From Cyathus striatus (Eukaryota > Basidiomycota > Agaricomycetes > Agaricales > Nidulariaceae): a stretch of 64,000 bases of DNA. The translations under genes were made by a program, and so were the position numbers. Where the stretch lies: positions 7,006,001-7,070,000 of the forward strand of contig JAOVFP010000001.1 in NCBI GenBank assembly GCA_025738555.1. The letters are read 5' to 3'. The notes beneath the pieces were generated by a model. The model worked only from the letters and a program-made list of their open reading frames with translations. It had not been told where the DNA came from and did not search any database. The number at the start of each line of letters is the position of its first letter. Within the stretch, counting starts at the first letter, position 1. This document shows, in pieces, positions 17,794 through 28,167 of this stretch.

Positions 17794-18865
17794 TATGACG
17801 CTCCAATGTGTCATTTATTCGCCGTACTTAACCATTGCCATACTCACAATAACTAGTTTTTCCATATTTTCAGTACACATCTTTACATCTACTATATTCT
17901 ACATGTAAATATATCCTATTACTCTGGGTATGTCTTTCATAATGACCGTTTTGACGAGTTTCTGAGACCTCGGAAATATCCGTTATAATTCCCACGCTCT
18001 TCTTGAGCGTCGTGCCGTACATCCAACTTCATTCTACTGTACCATTAAACATCATAGAACTTCGTTTAAGCTCTTCTTTTATTCTTGTACGTTGTGTCAA
18101 GCGATAATTGATACCAAAAATATTTATTATATGGTGGTTCTCATTGTTACATCCAATATTTAAGTACCTGTAATGATACTGCTCACCAAAAGGTATGTAT
18201 AAATTTGCTATCAATACAGCAAGCTGTGTATGTTATGTAAAAGCGGTGTGGAAGGAGTATAACATAAAAATTAGAGCCTTGTAGGTGGTTATCAAATGTC
18301 TTAGCTTTGAATTTAACTAGGTTAAACAGAAAATGTCCTGTGTTAAAACACAGGTACCACAAAAAGTATTTTAGCTTATCTGAGTTCAACAACTATTAAG
18401 TTTAACCATGCACATTAGCTTGAAGGTATGTAAGGTAAGTACTATCTGGACATGGCCATATTATGATGGGCAGTGTACAGGTACATTTATATATGAGATA
18501 ACATCGAGAAGTACCATATGATAAGCCTTTGTAGTGTAATTCATCTGCTACTGCGATATCCAACAATGAAATAAGAGCTAAAACGAAGTTTGGTAATGCC
18601 TAACGTACAGTAGAATGAAGTTGGATGTACGGCACGACGCTCAAGAAGAGCGTGGGAATTATAACGGATATTTTCCGAGGTCTCAGAAACTCGTCAAAAC
18701 GGTCATTATGAAAGACATACCCAGAGTAATAGGATATACTTACATGTAGAATATAGTAGATGTAAAGATGTGTACTGAAAATACAGAAAAACTAGTTATT
18801 GTGAGTATGGCAACGGTTAAGTACGGCGAACCGAACTACAAGTATGGCGAATAAATGACACATTG
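17794..18865. mobile_element. Inverted-repeat element IR1
   Basis: The left arm (about 17794-18055) starts TATGACGCTCCAATGTGTCA and includes CGGAAATATCCGTTATAATT and GTCGTGCCGTACATCC. The right arm (about 18595-18865) is its complement, ending at GACACATTG without the last 11 bases. The 530-base centre matches the centre of IR3 (landmarks GTTTAAGCTCTTCTTTT, TAAGTACCTGTARTGAYACT, ATGTCCTRTGTTAAA). No transposase is present; this is a large MITE-like unit. Confidence 0.75.
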
Positions 18866-19916
18866 TATGACGCTCCAACTATAAATAAATTTATATGATG
18901 CTCCAACTATAAATAAATTCACCGTACTAAAAACCTGTGCCGTACTTCGGTTGCCATAAATAAGTGTCGCCGTAATCGCAGAATTGGCTTATTCTGCAAT
19001 ATTATACATATATATGTATTCTACATGGTTATACTATGTACTCATATATTATAACGTCTTCGAAATTGACCGTTTCGACGATTTTTGCAGCTTCGGAAAT
19101 CTCCGTACAAGGTTCCCACACCTTCTCGAGGATGGAGCGTCATATCTATTAATAAATTCGCCGTAGTTATAGTTCGGTTCACTGTACTTAAGTGTCGCTG
19201 TAATCTTATAATCTGCGCATTTTTCGATATTTCCATCATAAATACATTCTGCTATTTAATAATATATGTTGATGTGTAAATCTACTGTGGATATGTCTGT
19301 AAAATTGACTGTTTTGACAACTTTCTAAGGATTCGGAAATTACCGTTTTAATTCCCGCGCTCTTCTGACCGTCGTGCCGTACATCCAACTTCATTCAATT
19401 GTACCAGATACCTTCAAGCTATATTGTATGTTCAGCTTCCCAATATACTGCATATTGCTATCAATAAATTAAGGAAGATGGTGCAGAAGAGGTATAACAT
19501 AACATAAAAATTGGAGCATTGTAGGTGCCTATCAAATGCCTTAGCTTATCTCAGTTCATGCCTGTAAGTAAATAGCATTTAATATAATAATTATATGTTA
19601 TATAGTATACAGAAGTATTATGTTATATATTTTAATGTATTAGTGAGAACGAAGTCATAACGACGTACCTTTCTCATCCTCGAGAATGCGTGGGAACCTT
19701 GTATGGAGATTTCCGAAGCTGCAAAATGTCGTTGAAACGGTCAATTTCGAAGACGTTATAATATATGAGTACATAGTATAACCATGTAGAATACATATAT
19801 ATGTATAATATTGCAGAATAAGCCAATTCTGCGATTACGGCGACACTTATTTACGGCAACCGAAGTACGGCACAGGTTTTTAGTATGGTGAATTTATTTA
19901 TAGTTGGAGCGTCATA
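18866..19916. mobile_element. Inverted-repeat element IR2
   Basis: Starts TATGACGCTCCAACTATAAA; the end at 19916 is the complement. The arms run about 250-280 bases and carry GGTTGCCATAAATAAGTGTC and TGACCGTTTCGACGATTTTT. The first 30 bases are duplicated in tandem at the left end. A partial IR1/IR3-type sequence lies in its centre (about 19290-19570), so it is itself a nested host. Confidence 0.7.
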
Positions 19917-19927
19917 CAGAGCGTCAT

Positions 19928-20981
19928 ACCAATGTGTCATTTATTCGCTGTACTTGTAGTTCGGTTCGCCGTAGTTAACCGTTGCCATACTCACAATATC
20001 TACTCATTTTTCGGTGTTTTCTGTACATATCTATACATTTAATATATATTACATGTTAATACATCTTACTACAACAGGTATGTCTTTCATAATGACCGTT
20101 TTGACGACTTTCTGAGGCCTCGGAAATATCCGTCATAATTCCCACGCTTCCGTTGACCTGCATCCAACTTCATCCTACTGTACCGCTAGGCATTACAGAA
20201 CTTCGTTTAAGCTCTTCTTTTGTTGTTGTACGTTCTGCTAGTCGATAATTAACACCGGAAATTATTAATATATGGTGGTACTCGATGTTACATCCAATAT
20301 TTAAGTACCTGTAGTGACACTGCTTACCAAAAGGTATGTTTAACTTTGCTATCAATACATTAAGCAATATGTGTGTTATATAAAAGTGGTGTAGAAAAGG
20401 TATAACATGAAAAAATTAGAGCCTTGCAGGGGCTATCAAATATCTTAGCTTTAAATTTAACTAGGTTAAACAGACAATGTCCTATGTTAAATCACAGGTA
20501 CCACAAAAGGCACCTTAGCTTATGTGAGTTCAAGAAATAGGCATGTAAGGTAAGTATTATTTGGACATGATCATACTTTGATTAGTAGTGTACAGGTACA
20601 TTTACATACAAGATACATCGAGAAATACCATATAATATATCTATTTAGTATAATTTATCTGTTGATGTGGTATACAATGATAAAATAAGAGCCAGAACGA
20701 AGTTTTGTAATGCCTAACGGTATAGTCAAATGAAGTTGGGTGTACGGCAAGACACTCAGAAGAGCGTGGGAACTACAACGGATATTTCCGAGGCCTCAGA
20801 AAGTCGTCAAAACAGTCATTATGAAAGACATACCTGTTGTAGTAAGATGTATTAACATGTAATATATATTAAATGTATAGATATGTACAGAAAACACCGA
20901 AAATGAGTAGATATTGTGAGTACGGCAACAGTTAACTACGGCGAACCGAACTACAAGTACGGCGAATAAATGACACATTGG
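19928..20981. mobile_element. Inverted-repeat element IR3, hit by the integrase element
   Basis: Same family as IR1. The left arm begins CCAATGTGTCATTTATTCGC (its first bases are lost against IR2). The right arm ends AATAAATGACACATTGG at 20981, and its last bases (AGCGTCATA) lie beyond the integrase element at 27278. The integrase element therefore sits inside the right terminus of IR3. Confidence 0.75.
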
Positions 20982-21097
20982 TATGAAGTTCCAAGTGTTG
21001 AAAAAGTCGCCGCCGCCGTAATTCGGTTGCCGTCGCCGTATCTGCATTGTGCCGTATCTACGACAGTGCCGTATCCACAACATCTCCATTTTTTTAC
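20982..21097 (+). repeat. Left terminal inverted repeat of the integrase transposon
   Basis: Complement of 27153-27271. It contains several GCCGTA-type steps (GTTGCCGTCGCCGTATC, TGTGCCGTATCTACGACAG). These resemble the GCCGTACTTCGGTTGCC motifs in the arms of IR1-IR3. Confidence 0.9.
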
Positions 21098-21425
21098 TCT
21101 CTTCACAATATATTTCACACTGTTTTAAAGTCAAATAGATACACAGATCCTGTTAGTATTGAATTACAGGATTCTTTATCTGATATTTGACGGAAATTGG
21201 TAACATTAAGCCTTTGGCTGATGGGTAATAGTATATAAGTGAACATGTATGAGTATTATAGTTGTAAGGAATGGAATATCATCGTAAAAATGATTAATGA
21301 AATGGGAACTAAAAGAATGGTAAGGTAATTAATGACTATGGGTATATGAATGGCAATTAAAACGATGTAGATATGATCTGCTGAGATGGGCAATTATACC
21401 CTGCACTAAGAGGAATGCGACGATA

Positions 21426-23292
21426 TCAAACATCAAACTTCTCAATCTCGTATGATTCTGACCAGGCGTTGCGGTAAGGGGTTTCACCGACCTGTACGTA
21501 CAAGGGCTGAGGCGAAGGTGGAGCCTCGAAGTCAGCATCAACAAAGCTACTTGAGAAATCAAAATTGCTGTCATGAATAACTGGGTCGATGCTATATTAA
21601 TTAAAAATCAGAATTTGTAGAAGAAATTGATATAATACCACATACTCCTGGATAGAAATGTCTGAATCGTCGATGACAATAACTTCCGGTGTATCTGCTC
21701 GACTGGCTGCAGCAGGAAGACCTGATGAATATGTAAGTTAAATATAGATGTTCTCACAACTAGCTATTACTTACGGGTGTCTTCATCTTCGACTGATGAA
21801 TAGGTAAGCTAGATATAGATGTTCTCGCAACTAGCTATTACTTACAGGTGTCTTCATCTTTGACGTGATCTGAACTAATAGTTTCCTTGATGCGCTTCCG
21901 AGAGCAACTAGAATGAGCTGCAAGTATTGTCAAAAACTGCATAGTAATATAATAATAAATTCACCATTGTGCGATGATTCTGATTCTGATGTCTGTCGTA
22001 ATGCCTTACGCTTCCTGTTACTGACTGCTTTTCATTGAAAATAAGATACGAAATTATAGTAAGACATTGAGAATATAAATAAATACCTGTTTTTTTAATG
22101 GACCCAGCTGATATCTTTCTGGAAACTGAGCGTGTTAGAGGCCGATTACGAAGTGAATGTTGAGATGATGCAGATGAGTCAGATTCATTCAATTCATCGA
22201 AATCCAAACCAGATGTAGTGGAAGTTCCATTAGAGTTACCATCAGAGCTAGCAAACCCATAAAACTCGTCATCTAGGTCATTGCTATTGTTGCTGCTGTG
22301 TGAGACATCTCCTGATTGAAATCGATAGTTCTTTGGGTTTATAGGCTTGGATAATGCTGAGAATGATATGAGTATAAATGTGTAATGGACTTTCGATCAG
22401 AAATAAAAAATATGATACATACTAATGAGTATCATTGACTCATCTATACGTGACTTTCCAGATCCTTTAAGTTGGTACATAACCCCTCCAGAAATGGTGT
22501 CGATATCAGCTACAATTAGTCTGCTGCTGTTGCGCTTTTTTCCGAGCAAAACCCACTCTAAACCATGAGTTTCGACGTACTCGAAGACATCCTGGAGTTT
22601 GGACTTCAGCCATGAGACACAGCGCCCGTGGGGCCAATTCCGACCAAATGCGAGCTCCTTTCCATCAGAATTAACCACCGCTAAGCCATATTTTTGAAGG
22701 TTGATGATATCCACAGCGGATAGAAGGCTGTCATCATAAAGAGTTCGTCGCTTCTGTATAGTTTCAGTTAATAATTCAATGCCAATATAATGGTAGAGAG
22801 CTTACTGGATCGAATCCTGAAGGAACACAAACCACCGCCCATACATTAATAAGAGACTCTCCTTTTTTGATGGACCGCCTGATGTCTAGAGGGCTCAAAT
22901 TATCAGTGCGAATATCTATCATGTAATCTTAAGAGACTTACTTTCAGTTTCGACTTTCGATATCCACGATTGGTCTCGTCAAGCGCCTCCTCCACTGTTG
23001 TATGTGCACGGACACCATCCTCCACCAATGTTGATTTGATTGTGTTCTTAACAATGTCATCAATATCGGGTGATGAGCGAGACGAAAGCTGGTATCTTGA
23101 AGTCGATACAAGTGGCCGATGAGAATGCGAGGACTTGGATTCAGAAGATGGGTGATGGGAGTTTGAGAACTTCGATCCAGAGGATGGGCGACGAGAATGT
23201 GAGGACTTCGATTCATAAGACGGTCGACGGCTAGAATGTGAGGACTTTGATCCAGAAAATGCCCGCTTAGAGCGTGACCTCCACATAATCAA
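21426..23292 (-). CDS. Serine-rich protein with SUMO-interaction-like motif
   Basis: A multi-exon gene in the integrase transposon. The N-terminus (23292-22943) is a serine/histidine-rich tract of repeated SKSSHSRRPSS units. The next exons give SLINVWAVVCVPSGFDP and KRRTLYDDSLLSAVDIIN, then a stretch with YGLAVVNSDGKELAFGRNW and HGLEWVLLGK. I recall this arrangement from an unnamed agaricomycete protein family but cannot assign a function. The C-terminal part is acidic and ends PEVIVIDDSDIS (a typical SUMO-interaction pattern), then a short last exon finishing at TGA 21426. Splice sites are canonical and no internal stop is found. Two copies of an intron plus short exon lie in tandem at 21727-21850. 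Exon limits are by eye. Confidence 0.7.
21727..21855 (-). repeat. Tandem duplication of an intron plus an 18-base microexon
   Basis: Two copies of about 70 bases, each holding GTAAGTAATAGCTAGTTG...TATTCATCAG (a complete intron) and an exon end coding DEDT. Splicing both introns keeps the frame and gives VKDEDT-FEDEDT-RLPAAAS. The copies differ at a few bases. Confidence 0.75.
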
Positions 23293-23878
23293 ATAGGTTG
23301 AAAGGAATGTATGAAAATAAATATAAAGGGTTATAGGAGGAAAGAATGGATGGTCTTCGGGCTGTTGAACAAGGTCGTATTTTTAAATAACTGTAGTGTG
23401 CTCCAGGTAGCAATCGGAGTTGTTCAGAAATGAACTACGTAATTCAGTGAACAATACAAGTGCTCTTGGAATGCACTTCGGTGACTCATTCTCTCAGTCG
23501 CTGCACGCTACTTACTAGGGTTCTGCTTCCGCGGCCATTGGTATCAAGCAATGTAATCTAGTGAGTGACACAAGAATTCTTGTAACGCACTTCAGTAACT
23601 CATTCTTTCTCTGCTGTGCATTACATACTTGGATTCCGCAGCTGTTTCCAATAGTATTAAAAGGGGCTGGTGTCATATTAAACACATTTTACAATGCACA
23701 TATTATCGATCACTACATGTATCAGCACGAGTCAGACTACTCCTGCAAAGTTCAAACATGTGTTCAGCATTTCATCAATTGATCAGTACTTATCCTTTGT
23801 TTTTGCAAATAAGTTCTTTCTGCCAGTTCTCCGTCACATGCCCATGAAGTGATTAAATATATATTACATTCTTTGGTC

Positions 23879-25864
23879 TTACAGCTGATTGACAAAATCT
23901 GTATCTAGCCGCAACTTCACTGCAATCATAGTTTTATATGCTTGGCACCAGCGCAGAGCACGAGGCTTCCATATATTGGAAGGGAGATCAATTACTACAT
24001 CCTTCCCCCTAACTTTTATTACTTCGCTTTCAGGGTATGTCTCATAATTCCACTCATCGTCATGAATCCGCATGTTTCGTGGAATACTGCCTTCACCAAT
24101 TACATGCGTAAGGGCTTCCTGAAACATGTTTTGACTTCGATCAGTAGAAAAGGGGTTGTCAGCATCCGGTGTCTTTGCAGCCTGCTGTTTAATATTATTC
24201 AGTTGGTGTTCATGGATATCATCAACGATTGCTTCAAGATCTTCATTTTCATCGGTGTCAGAGTGTCCTGCACCTGTTTGTGTCTGATCTCTTCGCAATA
24301 TATTTCCCATTGTTCCATGATAGCGCTGCAGAATATCTGGGTGCACACTGTTGTAGTCATCAACATATACACCTTCTGTAACTTGTCCTATTAAGTACAT
24401 GTCCTAGAGATTCTCTTGTCAGTATAAATACAATAAGCAATATTTGAATGTAAACATTAGGTGATTGGTTCCTTGCTTCCCGTCCTATTATTGGTTTATT
24501 ATTCCACAGTGTTTGAAATTCATTGCAATCATCATTAATTTCGTTCATGAAGAGGAAGTGGATTAGCCATAGGTGATGTGCATTATCTCTTTGAAGTCCA
24601 TGCAAATCTTCAAGTTGAATAAAAAATGCTTTCCATTGACGACAGAATTGCTTCCCAACCTCAACCCATAAACGCTCAATGCGTGTGTTATGTGTTGAGC
24701 TAAACAACTAGTTACCATTAATTTTAGAGCTACTAAAGACAAACTCTTACGATCCCCATAGAAATGAACCCCGATTTGGGCCCTGCCTCATTATCATATA
24801 CACAGAGACTAGTATATTTTCACCTCCCCTATCCCCACGCATTCTAGAAGGACAACCATATTCTCGAACTGCGAGCAAAAATAAATCAAGTACAGTACTT
24901 GATTTATTATTATTGCTTGCTTTCAATGCTGTTACCTGAAGAGAAAATGTGAGATTGCAGAATAGAAACTAGGTTTAAATAATGTTACCATGCGCGAATA
25001 TCCATCAACTATTCCATGAATAACTATTCCCCACTGAATAAGTTTATGATGTCCATCAAGATGCCACAGACTGTTTGGCATTCTAACAGTATATTTTCGT
25101 CGATGCAGTGCTCTCCTCTGGCGCAAGATATGGCCAACTGGATCAACACGACGAGCAGAGCTAAGTACCCGTCTTCGTTGAATCCTTAATCCTTTTGTAC
25201 GCAGAAAAGCAGTCAAATATGCGAAACCCAGAGCTGGGTTTTCGAGCCTTAAACTTGCAAACAATTTTATCCAATTGACGATCACTTAATGCGGAGAATT
25301 TATGTGATATTTCATATCTTGTCATGTAATTGTACACAGTTGAACGGTGAACTCCAAGCATCTTGGAAAGCTTGGTAATAGGTATGTTTCTTGCTGATGA
25401 CAACACTTCTTGTAAGAAATCTGGATCTATCTCTTTTTCGTGGACGGCCGAAGTTTTGTCTATTAATAGTAATGGGGTTAATACGCTGTATTTTTCTTTC
25501 GTCACTGAATATTTAGCAAATAATGTTACAAATACTTGGAAACAAAACTAAATATCAAAATGTCATACCGATCCCTTGATAGTGCTTCAGCTTTCTGGAG
25601 TTCTGCAACAACAACTCCCATTTGTTCAGCACAGGCTGTTATCCACTCATTTGGAAGTGGCATAATCATATCAGACTTGAGTGCACGTAGCAATGGTATG
25701 CTGTCACGCATGATAAGTTCAGCCATTTGATCCAACTGAATCAGATCAGCTTCATCTTGGTTCAGGAGCTGTAATGCAAGGCTGTGTGTTTCATTTAGTG
25801 TTTGAAATGCACGGTGTGTGTTCTCTGGCCAGTTTTCATGTAGAGGAAGGGGTGGGAGTGGCAT
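23879..25864 (-). CDS. DDE integrase of the rve type (transposon integrase)
   Basis: Five exons by eye: 25864-25569, 25504-24989, 24935-24751, 24699-24456 and 24403-23879. The N-terminal part has a FGRPRK segment and a helix-turn-helix-like LGVHRSTVYNYMTRYEIS. The catalytic core shows D in PNSLWHLDGHHK, D in MRGDRGGEN and E in SSTHNTRIERLW, in the order expected for the integrase fold. It matches what I remember of a fungal and animal integrase-core family (Pfam rve type). Two single-base homopolymer changes break the frame, at a T5 run (25434-25438) and an A4 run (25205-25208). Removing one base from each restores a continuous family-like protein with no stop. It lies 121 bases from, and divergent to, the BTB gene. 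Confidence 0.82.
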
Positions 25865-25985
25865 ATTTCAAATAGATGTCGATCAAAACCATCTGTCTCA
25901 GTTATATTAGTTAACTGTGAGAGCTAACATCCGATTTGAGTCACATTTATATCGCATTCCCCAGGGTATATATATCCACAGTGCA
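25865..25985. promoter_or_regulatory. Short divergent promoter, integrase and BTB gene
   Basis: Only 121 bases separate the two start codons, so both genes must draw their core promoters from this interval. It contains TATATATATCC and TTATATCG stretches near the middle. No specific operator can be named. Confidence 0.5.
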
Positions 25986-26987
25986 ATGAGCTCGTGTAAT
26001 TTGTCAAACATGCCCTATCAGCATCATGACCGGTTCTACTTCGAGTTTGGCAGTGATATATTTCGGGTGAGTATTTTGTAGCTTATGTTTTCATGCCTCT
26101 CTCTAATGACTATTATTGTAGGTTGAACAAACATTATATAAATTATACCGAGATGTCCTCACACGACACTCTGATGTTTTGGCACACATGTTCTCTGTCC
26201 CACAGCCCACTGTTGAATCTCCATCTCATGTTGAAGGGAAGAGCGATGAAAATCCTATCGTTCTTGAAGGAATAACTTGCATGGAATTCGATCACTTACT
26301 TGATTGGATCTTTCCTACCTTGTATGTCTACCACATGATCAATCCGCTGGGAACTGTCTCACAAACTGTCATAGATGTCCTGATGAAACAGTCACCTGGG
26401 ACTTTGAATACTGGCGTTCCTTATTTCGCCTCTCAGACATGTACAGTATTACGAAGGCAAAGGAGGAATCAATTCAATATTTACGGTCAGCAATGAAATA
26501 TGGAACTCAAAACCCAGCGAAGGTTCTTGAATTTGCAAGGGGTTATCCAGGCATTTTGGACGAGGTTTTCACCGCAGCTTTTCACTCATTGGTCCATAAA
26601 GATATCTCCACCTTGTCACCAGGTGATGCGGAATTAATTGGACTCCGCTGCCTTCTTGCTGTTGTTAAGGTGCAGAACTCGATCTTAAAGATCCGACGTG
26701 ATCTTGTTTTTATTCCACCTTCTGTTTCACATGCAGTATCTTGCTCTGATAACGTGGTATGTGCTGATATCTTCAGAGATGAATGGTGGAAGCACGTTGG
26801 CCGGGCAATTCTTAACCCTGCAAGACATGAACGGTCTGATAGGATCAAATCTATGATTCAGTCGATGGACTTCAAAAGAATGAATCATGCATGTTGGGAG
26901 AAGACGAAGAAGCTCTTACCTTACGATAAGTTTAGCTTAGAGGATACCATCATTAAGCAGTGTGTATCACAGCTACTTGGTACTTAA
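25986..26987 (+). CDS. BTB/POZ-domain protein carried by the integrase transposon
   Basis: Exons 25986-26066, 26122-26321 and 26375-26987 join in frame to 297 residues; all three junctions are GT-AG. The start was chosen because ATG 25986 leads directly into the BTB strand (DRFYFEFGSDIFR, then VEQTLYKLYRDVLTRHSDVL and MFSVPQP). This is followed by SDENPIVLEGITCMEF, the usual agaricomycete BTB signature. The C-terminal half (FEYWRSLFRLSDMYSITKAK, EFARGYPGILDEVFTAAFHS, DAELIGLRCLLAVV) matches the companion region of the same large family. BTB proteins often bring partners to cullin-3 ligases or act in transcription; a role here is not shown. No stop or frameshift is present. Confidence 0.88.
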
Positions 26988-27152
26988 CTCTGAATAGTTA
27001 TGTGCTCATTCACATTGTTTTTATTAATACACTGTTGTTTTCATGTTTTTAAGTTTTCATGTTCGAATTATTAGCTAATTTCGAATGTTTGATGTATAAC
27101 ATGTCCTCCATATACGTTATTTGATGCATGTAGATAATAGATATCATAAAAG

Positions 27153-27271
27153 AAGTAAAAAAAAAGGAGATGCTGTGGATACGGCACTGTCGTAGATACG
27201 GCACAATGCAGATACGGCGACGGCAACCGAATTATGGCGGCGGCGACTTTTTCAACACTTGGAACTTCATA
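27153..27271 (-). repeat. Right terminal inverted repeat of the integrase transposon
   Basis: Complement of 20982-21097 with few differences (for example TTATGGC against TTACGGC). It ends CTTGGAACTTCATA and is followed by the second CATTGG. Confidence 0.9.
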
Positions 27272-27277
27272 CATTGG

Positions 27278-28167
27278 AGCGTCATAGTGCTCCGTCCTCA
27301 TTGTCGATCCGTGTGTCCTCGTTTAAGGGCATCCAGAGCATTCATAACTTTTGAGAATTGCAATCTTTGCGGGCCAATGTTCGATCGTTGATGTCCAATA
27401 GAACGGGTCGTGTACTGGTGGTTTATTATTGTGAATTTGAAGTATGCACAGGTAGTTGAACTCGACACCGGTAGTATGTACCTTTTGTTGTAGTCGCAGT
27501 TAACCCAATAACGTGTAATTTTGGTGTTGGACTTTGGTCTATACCGGGTTGAAAGGCAAATTAACGGTTTAAACCAAGCTTGAACGACATACATACCTCG
27601 ATTGAACTTAGGTCGTGAGGATCGAGTGCTGTTTTCGTCTCATTCATATGCAGAGTGCACTGTGAATTAACCAGTACGTTCTATTTCCGTGGTTATCGAT
27701 GGTCCGGTGGGTCGGGTCAGTTAAAATTGTGTCGTGTGTAGCAAGTGTGCACTGTGTAAGAGGAGCGCATGAAGAAAACATCGATGCGAACGGTCCCAAG
27801 TTTCGGTTCAGGCGCTTGTGGAAGATCCTGTTCATAGCTGTTGTCGATTTCATCTGCGCATTTATCTTCGTGGTCGAATGGATTCATGTCTAGATGCGCT
27901 CAATAGGCGGGTGCGCGCTTCACTTTACTAAGTTGCAAGTTGTTGATAAGATAAGATGGATATCACATGACGCGTGTGAAAGTTGAATTCAACGTTCCGA
28001 ACTTCTGGCGCTGTTCCGATTCGACCTCTCGTCGCTCGAATGCCAACCACCTTCACCGTCCCAATTCTGCTACTCGCTTTAGGTCCCATGATCCCAAAGC
28101 TCGTGTTCACGTGCTGAACGCTGGTGAATGTCAAGTATAGGTTCATACCAAGCCAGTAAGTATACTC
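27278..28167. other. Repeat relics, no supported gene
   Basis: Starts with the displaced end of IR3 (27278-27287). The stretch 27770-27960 is related to 12490-12700. Short frames on both strands (27298-27594 and 27644-27853) show no domain. Confidence 0.45.

What the first reader, a model, noticed from the sequence alone, without database searches (positions are those of the whole stretch)
20982..27271. Compact integrase transposon with a BTB gene and a SUMO-motif gene as passengers
The element has complete boundaries: about 115-base inverted termini, a 6-base CATTGG duplication, and an empty site readable from neighbouring IR-family copies. It carries a DDE integrase with D, D and E all visible, but none of the Polinton partners that normally go with 6-base duplications. 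The two other genes are intact and spliced. All three genes lack the TGA decay of the other coding remnants. This may be a little-described integrase-transposon class that carries regulatory-type cargo.
Basis: partly seen in the sequence, partly recalled or inferred. Interest (0 to 1): 0.88.

Follow-up and report, generated by a model that had tools for sequence, protein, structure and literature searches.

The report
Three-gene IS3EU jumping gene in mushroom
This is a mobile DNA element of a known but little-studied class in a mushroom-type fungal genome; its two extra genes, taken for stray passengers, are long-standing companions of its transposase in this genome, and they look like proteins that may contact the cell's ubiquitin and SUMO tagging systems.

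Summary
The element is real: 20982-27271 (6290 bp), 114-bp TIRs (111/114), CATTGG 6-bp TSD, readable empty site, and a second full copy (99.6%) on another contig with its own TSD. TA..TA termini, 6-bp TSDs (11 of 18 copies checked, no other length), an rve-type DDE transposase (Pfam rva_4) and no HHCC motif fit the known IS3EU superfamily, not Polintons or Ginger; no tree could be built. The 'cargo' is not accidental: of 23 integrase loci in this genome, 19 have the BTB gene head-to-head with the integrase and 18 the third gene downstream (both 16, neither 2); integrase and BTB distances agree (Mantel r 0.95, 11 loci). Two more families have full TIRs and 6-bp TSDs. The third gene's domain lies behind the integrase in eight gene models from six other agaricomycetes, and SUMO-interaction-like motifs occur in 5 of 9 tails. 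BTB outside this genome was found only in Cyathus striatus. What the BTB and SIM proteins do is inferred, untested.

The parts
20976..20981 (.). Left target site duplication CATTGG
20982..21095 (+). Left terminal inverted repeat, begins TATGAAGTTCC; four GCCGTA motifs in the first 120 bp
21426..23287 (-). Third (serine-rich) gene, spliced; one frameshift in this copy by my model; exon limits approximate
   Evidence: gene model by eye
21660..21683 (-). SUMO-interaction-like motif VIVIDDSD in the third protein's tail
22424..22753 (-). Conserved ~110-aa domain of the third protein, no Pfam match
23879..25864 (-). rve-type DDE integrase/transposase gene, 5 exons (25569-25864, 24989-25504, 24751-24935, 24456-24699, 23879-24403); two one-base frameshifts in exon 2 of this copy
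25865..26009 (.). 145-bp head-to-head intergenic stretch between integrase and BTB starts (two-way promoter is inferred)
26010..26987 (+). BTB gene, 3 exons (26010-26066, 26122-26321, 26375-26987 with stop), 289 aa, intact, identical protein in the C6 copy
27158..27271 (-). Right terminal inverted repeat, ends GGAACTTCATA
27272..27277 (.). Right target site duplication CATTGG
17794..17829 (+). Start of a related element that reads the empty site in reverse complement (36 of 36 bases)

Best explanation
It is an IS3EU-superfamily DNA transposon with a conserved three-gene organisation: a SIM-bearing third gene and the DDE transposase on one strand, and a BTB gene head-to-head with the transposase. 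Shown: elements with TA..TA TIRs and 6-bp TSDs contain all three genes, and the genes keep together across families whose integrases are diverged to about a third identity. Inferred: the transposase (HTH-like stretch plus rve core, DD34E) binds repeats in the TIRs and joins the ends to a staggered target cut; the BTB protein acts as a dimeric adaptor (possibly to CUL3), and the third protein uses its SIMs to bind SUMOylated chromatin or silencing factors, so that together they help the element escape silencing or reach a target. The window copy is probably not autonomous as assembled but could be served by relatives.
For: Boundaries and second copy. Exact 6-bp TSD in 11 of 18 copies (window plus 17 of the 20 stretches fetched; three had no clear second end), none at 3-5 or 7-9 bp. 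Pfam rva_4 E 2.4e-62; no HHCC pattern; termini and TSD match the IS3EU description in passages of PMC10045372 and PMC12730594. BTB at 19, third gene at 18, both at 16 of 23 integrase loci; 0.04 BTB cases expected for randomly placed, unrelated loci. Mantel r 0.954, p 5e-5 over 11 loci; within the two clades r 0.998 and 0.922. Further families with full TIR and TSD: C18:1333028-1340200, CTGTAC; C4:5916671-5926541, CTAAAG, and C18:418926-428189, AATTAC. All 6 BTBs of alignment A1 match Pfam BTB at E up to 0.5, best 3.9e-7. Third-gene domain behind the integrase in 8 gene models of other agaricomycetes: 4 at E 1.5e-7 or better and one at 0.0023 in the first round, the other 3 at 1.7e-4 or better in the second; reversed sequences never below 0.61. 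SIM-like motif in 5 of 9 tails, 0.25 expected.
Against: The window BTB alone scores under Pfam's cut-off (15.4 vs 20.5). BTB relatives outside this genome were found only in Cyathus striatus (3 proteins), probably a near relative of the source, so BTB may be a local addition. 4 of 23 integrase loci lack BTB, 5 lack the third gene, 2 lack both; in 3 loci BTB is 1.4-8.2 kb away. Several of the 23 loci belong to one family, so they are not independent, and the chance figure and the Mantel p overstate the case. 21 of 40 BTB-like places are not near an integrase. Structure models were poor (pLDDT 67.5 and 54.9), and the fold search made with the third-gene model matched nothing. No integrase tree with named IS3EU sequences. 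The SIM rule was written after I had seen motifs by eye; C18's VITIDDDPV fails it. The zinc-like pattern was found in only 3 of 9 outside models tested. No function is tested.
Confidence: 0.8

Rival explanations
1. An IS3EU transposon whose core is integrase plus third gene; the BTB gene is a capture limited to bird's-nest-fungus relatives and has no transposition role.
For: The third gene is seen behind the integrase in other agaricomycetes, whereas BTB was found only in Cyathus striatus; the single-sequence BTB search found none.
Against: BTB accompanies integrases of both deep clades in this genome (32-54% identity to the window's over 10 other loci), with congruent distances and similar intron positions. 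BTB lies on the opposite strand, so gene models would not fuse it, and the protein search reaches only relatives that share 5-residue words.
Confidence: 0.3
2. The two genes are accidental host-gene cargo caught by one element.
For: Both are regulatory-type; mushroom genomes have many BTB genes (recalled, not from a call).
Against: 19 and 18 of 23 integrase loci, from several families, carry them in the same order and strand; both copies of the window family carry them.
Confidence: 0.03
3. A reduced Polinton/Maverick or a Ginger element.
For: 6-bp TSD is also Polinton's; rve core.
Against: No Polinton-type domain in the three genes or in the other long frames given to Pfam; TA..TA termini; Pfam rva_4; Ginger makes 4-5 bp TSDs and Ginger1 has HHCC (PMC10045372, passages).
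Confidence: 0.05
4. The BTB and third proteins serve transposition directly (transpososome assembly, nuclear import or target choice) rather than countering host silencing.
For: Tight co-diversification of BTB and integrase fits physical interaction; BTB domains dimerise (recalled).
Against: No test made; rust IS3EU carry TET/JBP genes that the author proposes to counter methylation-based silencing (PMC12730594, abstract and passages), which makes anti-silencing genes plausible in this superfamily.
Confidence: 0.35

Closest known systems
IS3EU / GingerRoot superfamily (PMC10045372, PMC12730594; passages read)
   Same: TA..TA termini, 6-bp TSD, rve-type DDE transposase without HHCC, multi-gene elements in fungi.
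   Different: Passages I read describe TET/JBP and alpha-kinase genes in fungal IS3EU; here BTB and a SIM-bearing third protein. 'BTB' and 'SUMO' do not occur in the main text of PMC12730594.
Rust-fungus TET+ IS3EU (PMC12730594, passages)
   Same: An accessory gene in the opposite orientation to the transposase; termini TAYGG..CCRTA match the C4 family here (TATGG..CCATA).
   Different: Alpha-kinase instead of BTB; TET/JBP between the genes; the window family starts TATGA.
Helitron-encoded deubiquitinases, VTD and OTU (PMC9741609, passages)
   Same: A transposon with its own ubiquitin-related protein.
   Different: Enzymes in rolling-circle elements; here a non-enzymatic adaptor-like BTB in a DDE element.
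Polinton/Maverick
   Same: 6-bp TSD, long TIRs, rve integrase.
   Different: No polymerase, ATPase, protease or capsid domain found; 6.3 kb.
Ginger1/Ginger2
   Same: rve integrase, TIR element.
   Different: 4-5 bp TSDs, and HHCC in Ginger1.

Membership tests
IS3EU | TA..TA termini | tested here: met
   TAT..ATA in the window, C18 and C4 families
IS3EU | 6-bp TSD | tested here: met
   11 of 18 copies of the window family, no other length from 3 to 9; C18 and C4 families
IS3EU | rve-type DDE transposase lacking HHCC | tested here: met
   PF24764 and PF00665; D248, D305, E340, no HHCC pattern; on the C6 copy
IS3EU | Transposase groups with IS3EU/GingerRoot in a tree | not testable with these tools
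   No named IS3EU reference sequence was available
Polinton/Maverick | Polymerase, packaging ATPase, protease, capsid genes | tested here: not met
   Pfam on integrase, BTB, four third-gene pieces and three other long frames shows none; not every short frame was scanned
Ginger1/2 | 4-5 bp TSD | tested here: not met
   0 of 18 copies at 4 or 5 bp
BTB/POZ proteins | Pfam BTB domain | tested here: met
   6 of 6 family members match at E up to 0.5, best 3.9e-7; C12 copy above the curated cut-off, the window copy below it
BTB/POZ proteins | BTB fold and CUL3 binding | tested here: inconclusive
   AlphaFold model of a C7 relative, pLDDT 54.9, too poor; binding not testable
SIM-containing proteins | Hydrophobic core next to an acidic/serine run | tested here: met
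   5 of 9 tails including the window's, shuffle mean 0.25; SUMO binding itself not testable

The most novel reading that the evidence does not exclude
A long-lived lineage of eukaryotic DNA transposons carries its own ubiquitin/SUMO interface: a BTB adaptor and a SIM-bearing protein that co-evolved with the transposase and redirect host ubiquitin ligases or SUMO-marked silencing complexes to protect or target the element.
Probability: 0.25. Interest if true: 0.82.

Novelty: new variant of a known kind. Interest (0 to 1): 0.6.

Why it matters
The two IS3EU papers of which I saw passages describe few accessory genes. A gene set kept through deep divergence suggests that transposition or survival needs it. 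That makes it testable whether transposons recruit the host's ubiquitin and SUMO systems with proteins of their own. It also warns that BTB-like genes of this family, and 'integrase fusion' gene models in databases, may be transposon genes.

Tried and rejected
Tried without result: single-sequence BTB protein search (none of 549 candidates); sequence searches of solved structures (none; one weak hit, E 0.0012, a chain named acyltransferase); structure models of a BTB relative from C7 and of the third-gene domain (too poor) and a fold search with the latter (best E 0.7); viral-contig scan with integrase alignment A4 (94 stretches matched a pattern, none confirmed). Papers: IS3EU with BTB (1 paper, on buffalo methylation, listing only); broader listings. 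The 2020 review I sought is not held.

Considered and rejected: accidental cargo; Polinton; Ginger; chance TIR.

Search hits are lower bounds. One search used 11 of the 23 loci, those whose letters I held; its window integrase row comes from the frameshifted copy and is wrong around the first D. One search used 9 third-protein tails; those of C12, C3, C7, P0085 and P0107 were not included.

Full report
1. Observation. The element runs from 20982 to 27271 (6290 bp). Its 114-bp ends pair at 111 positions and it is flanked by CATTGG on both sides. A second full copy lies on contig C6 (5543571-5549861), 99.6% identical, with its own duplication TATTTG. The terminal region gave 66 matches in the genome (lower bound). 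Twenty stretches were fetched; with the window, 18 copies had both ends clear, and 11 of 18 have an exact 6-bp duplication while none has one of 3-5 or 7-9 bp. The empty site is readable: the flanks joined with one CATTGG share their last 36 bases exactly with the reverse complement of the start of another element at 17794, so this element jumped into the terminus of a relative.

2. Genes. The integrase is on the minus strand in five exons. In the C6 copy it is open (587 aa) with Pfam rva_4 (E 2.4e-62), weak HTH matches below their cut-offs, D248, D305 and E340 and no HHCC pattern. In the window copy it has two one-base frameshifts in exon 2. By my gene model the serine-rich gene has one frameshift in each copy, at different places. 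The BTB gene, on the plus strand, is intact (289 aa) and its protein is identical in both copies. The claim that all three are intact is therefore wrong for this copy, with the caveat that some indels lie in homopolymers.

3. The companions are conserved. I searched the own genome with each protein. Clustering gave 23 integrase loci, the two full copies included. BTB lies 5' of the integrase on the opposite strand in 19 of 23 (16 of 23 within 1 kb; the other three at 1.4, 3.7 and 8.2 kb), the third gene downstream on the same strand in 18 of 23, both in 16 of 23, neither in 2 of 23. The loci without BTB are C3:2277528, C7:4700488, C15:381136 and C3:1853988; those without the third gene are C7:2075881, C7:2046918, C19:2186900, C15:381136 and C3:1853988. 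About 0.04 BTB cases would be expected if loci were placed at random; but several loci are copies of one family, so they are not independent. 21 of 22 third-gene places, but only 19 of 40 BTB-like places, lie by an integrase. In 11 loci compared, the other integrases are 32-54% identical to the window's and the BTBs 15-43%; the two distance matrices agree (Mantel r 0.954, p 5e-5; r 0.998 and 0.922 inside the two clades). BTB exon limits fall at similar places by eye. Six BTBs share two cysteines and a WW pair, and 6 of 6 match Pfam BTB at E up to 0.5, best 3.9e-7, though the window member alone is below the curated cut-off.

4. More complete families. C18:1333028-1340200 has TIRs of about 510 bp (TATGACGCTCC..) and TSD CTGTAC and carries all three genes, the integrase with two in-frame TGA stops by my reading. 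C4:5916671-5926541 (TATGGCGGTC..; TSD CTAAAG) and C18:418926-428189 (TSD AATTAC) form another family with the same arrangement. For the related C16 copy I found one end only.

5. Beyond this genome. Integrase relatives are common in Agaricomycetes (317 proteins at E up to 0.001, best 120 listed). Seven of those 120 are longer than 740 aa. A profile of the third gene's domain matches behind the integrase core in all seven and in P0107, eight models from six species: Lanmaoa asiatica (three, two of them nearly alike), Coprinellus, Favolaschia, Agrocybe, Psilocybe and Galerina. In the first round four reached E 1.5e-7 or better and P0090 0.0023; the remaining three were insignificant (0.34-0.63) and reached 1.7e-4 or better in the second round. 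Later E-values (below 1e-24) include the sequences in their own model. Reversed sequences never fell below 0.61. So the third gene follows IS3EU-type integrases in other agaricomycetes, as far as these fused gene models can be trusted. BTB relatives were found only in Cyathus striatus: three proteins among 3566 candidates, 47-81% identical to the C16 BTB. I infer that the source is a Cyathus or near kin; no tool names it. Whether BTB is general is open.

6. Third protein. Beside the conserved ~110-aa domain (no Pfam family), the C4 copy begins with a CxC..CxxCxH zinc-like motif (by eye), found in 3 of 9 outside models (P0005, P0023, P0107). Tails show hydrophobic-plus-acidic motifs of the SUMO-interaction type: 5 of 9 by a fixed rule against 0.25 in shuffles, P 2e-4; the rule was written after I had seen the motifs. 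C18's VITIDDDPV misses it.

7. Classification. PMC10045372 (passages) says that complete IS3EU families always have TA..TA termini, that TSDs are usually 6 bp, and that the transposases lack HHCC. PMC12730594 (abstract and passages) describes rust IS3EU with TET/JBP and alpha-kinase genes, the latter opposite to the transposase. The element meets every feature I could test; the tree position is untested. A search for papers with IS3EU and BTB gave one unrelated paper (listing only), so I found no report of this gene set in the library searched. PMC9741609 (passages) gives a precedent for ubiquitin-related genes in transposons (deubiquitinases in Helitrons).

8. Mechanism. Shown: complete elements with the gene set, its conservation, and co-diversification. 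From established knowledge: rve-core DDE enzymes join ends to staggered target cuts, which gives the TSD. Inferred: GCCGTA repeats near the ends (4 in the window family, 3 in the C18 family, 0 in the C4 family; GTGCCG 2 in each) as binding sites; BTB as dimeric adaptor; SIM protein as link to SUMO-marked chromatin. Anti-silencing and transpososome roles are about equally likely.

Noticed in passing
window 17794-19916 and 27276-27286: Several ends of the C18-type family (TATGACGCTCC at 17794, 18866; GGAGCGTCATA at 19134, 19906, 27276): nested related elements; the window element sits in one of their termini.
   Followed up: partly
window 21722-21863: A 71-bp tandem duplication (92%) inside the third gene, possibly a duplicated mini-exon with intron borders.
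   Followed up: no
window 26010-26987 versus the C6 copy: None of the 24 differing alignment columns between the two copies falls in the 978-bp BTB gene, although about 3.7 would be expected by length.
   Followed up: no
L024 (C5:6321952-6329884): A terminus pair with TSD CTGTTA encloses 7.9 kb with long frames that look like another transposon's protein (recalled resemblance, not tested): probably a nested insertion.
   Followed up: partly
C7 of the own genome, 1.6-2.4 Mb: Five of the 23 integrase loci lie in one 0.8-Mb stretch of C7.
   Followed up: no
C6:3590706-3591541 (L064): A BTB relative with a window-type terminus (24 of 24 bases, partly doubled) beside it but no integrase hit: perhaps a partial element.
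   Followed up: no
P0068: An agaricomycete-like integrase listed for the willow Salix suchowensis, perhaps fungal contamination.
   Followed up: no
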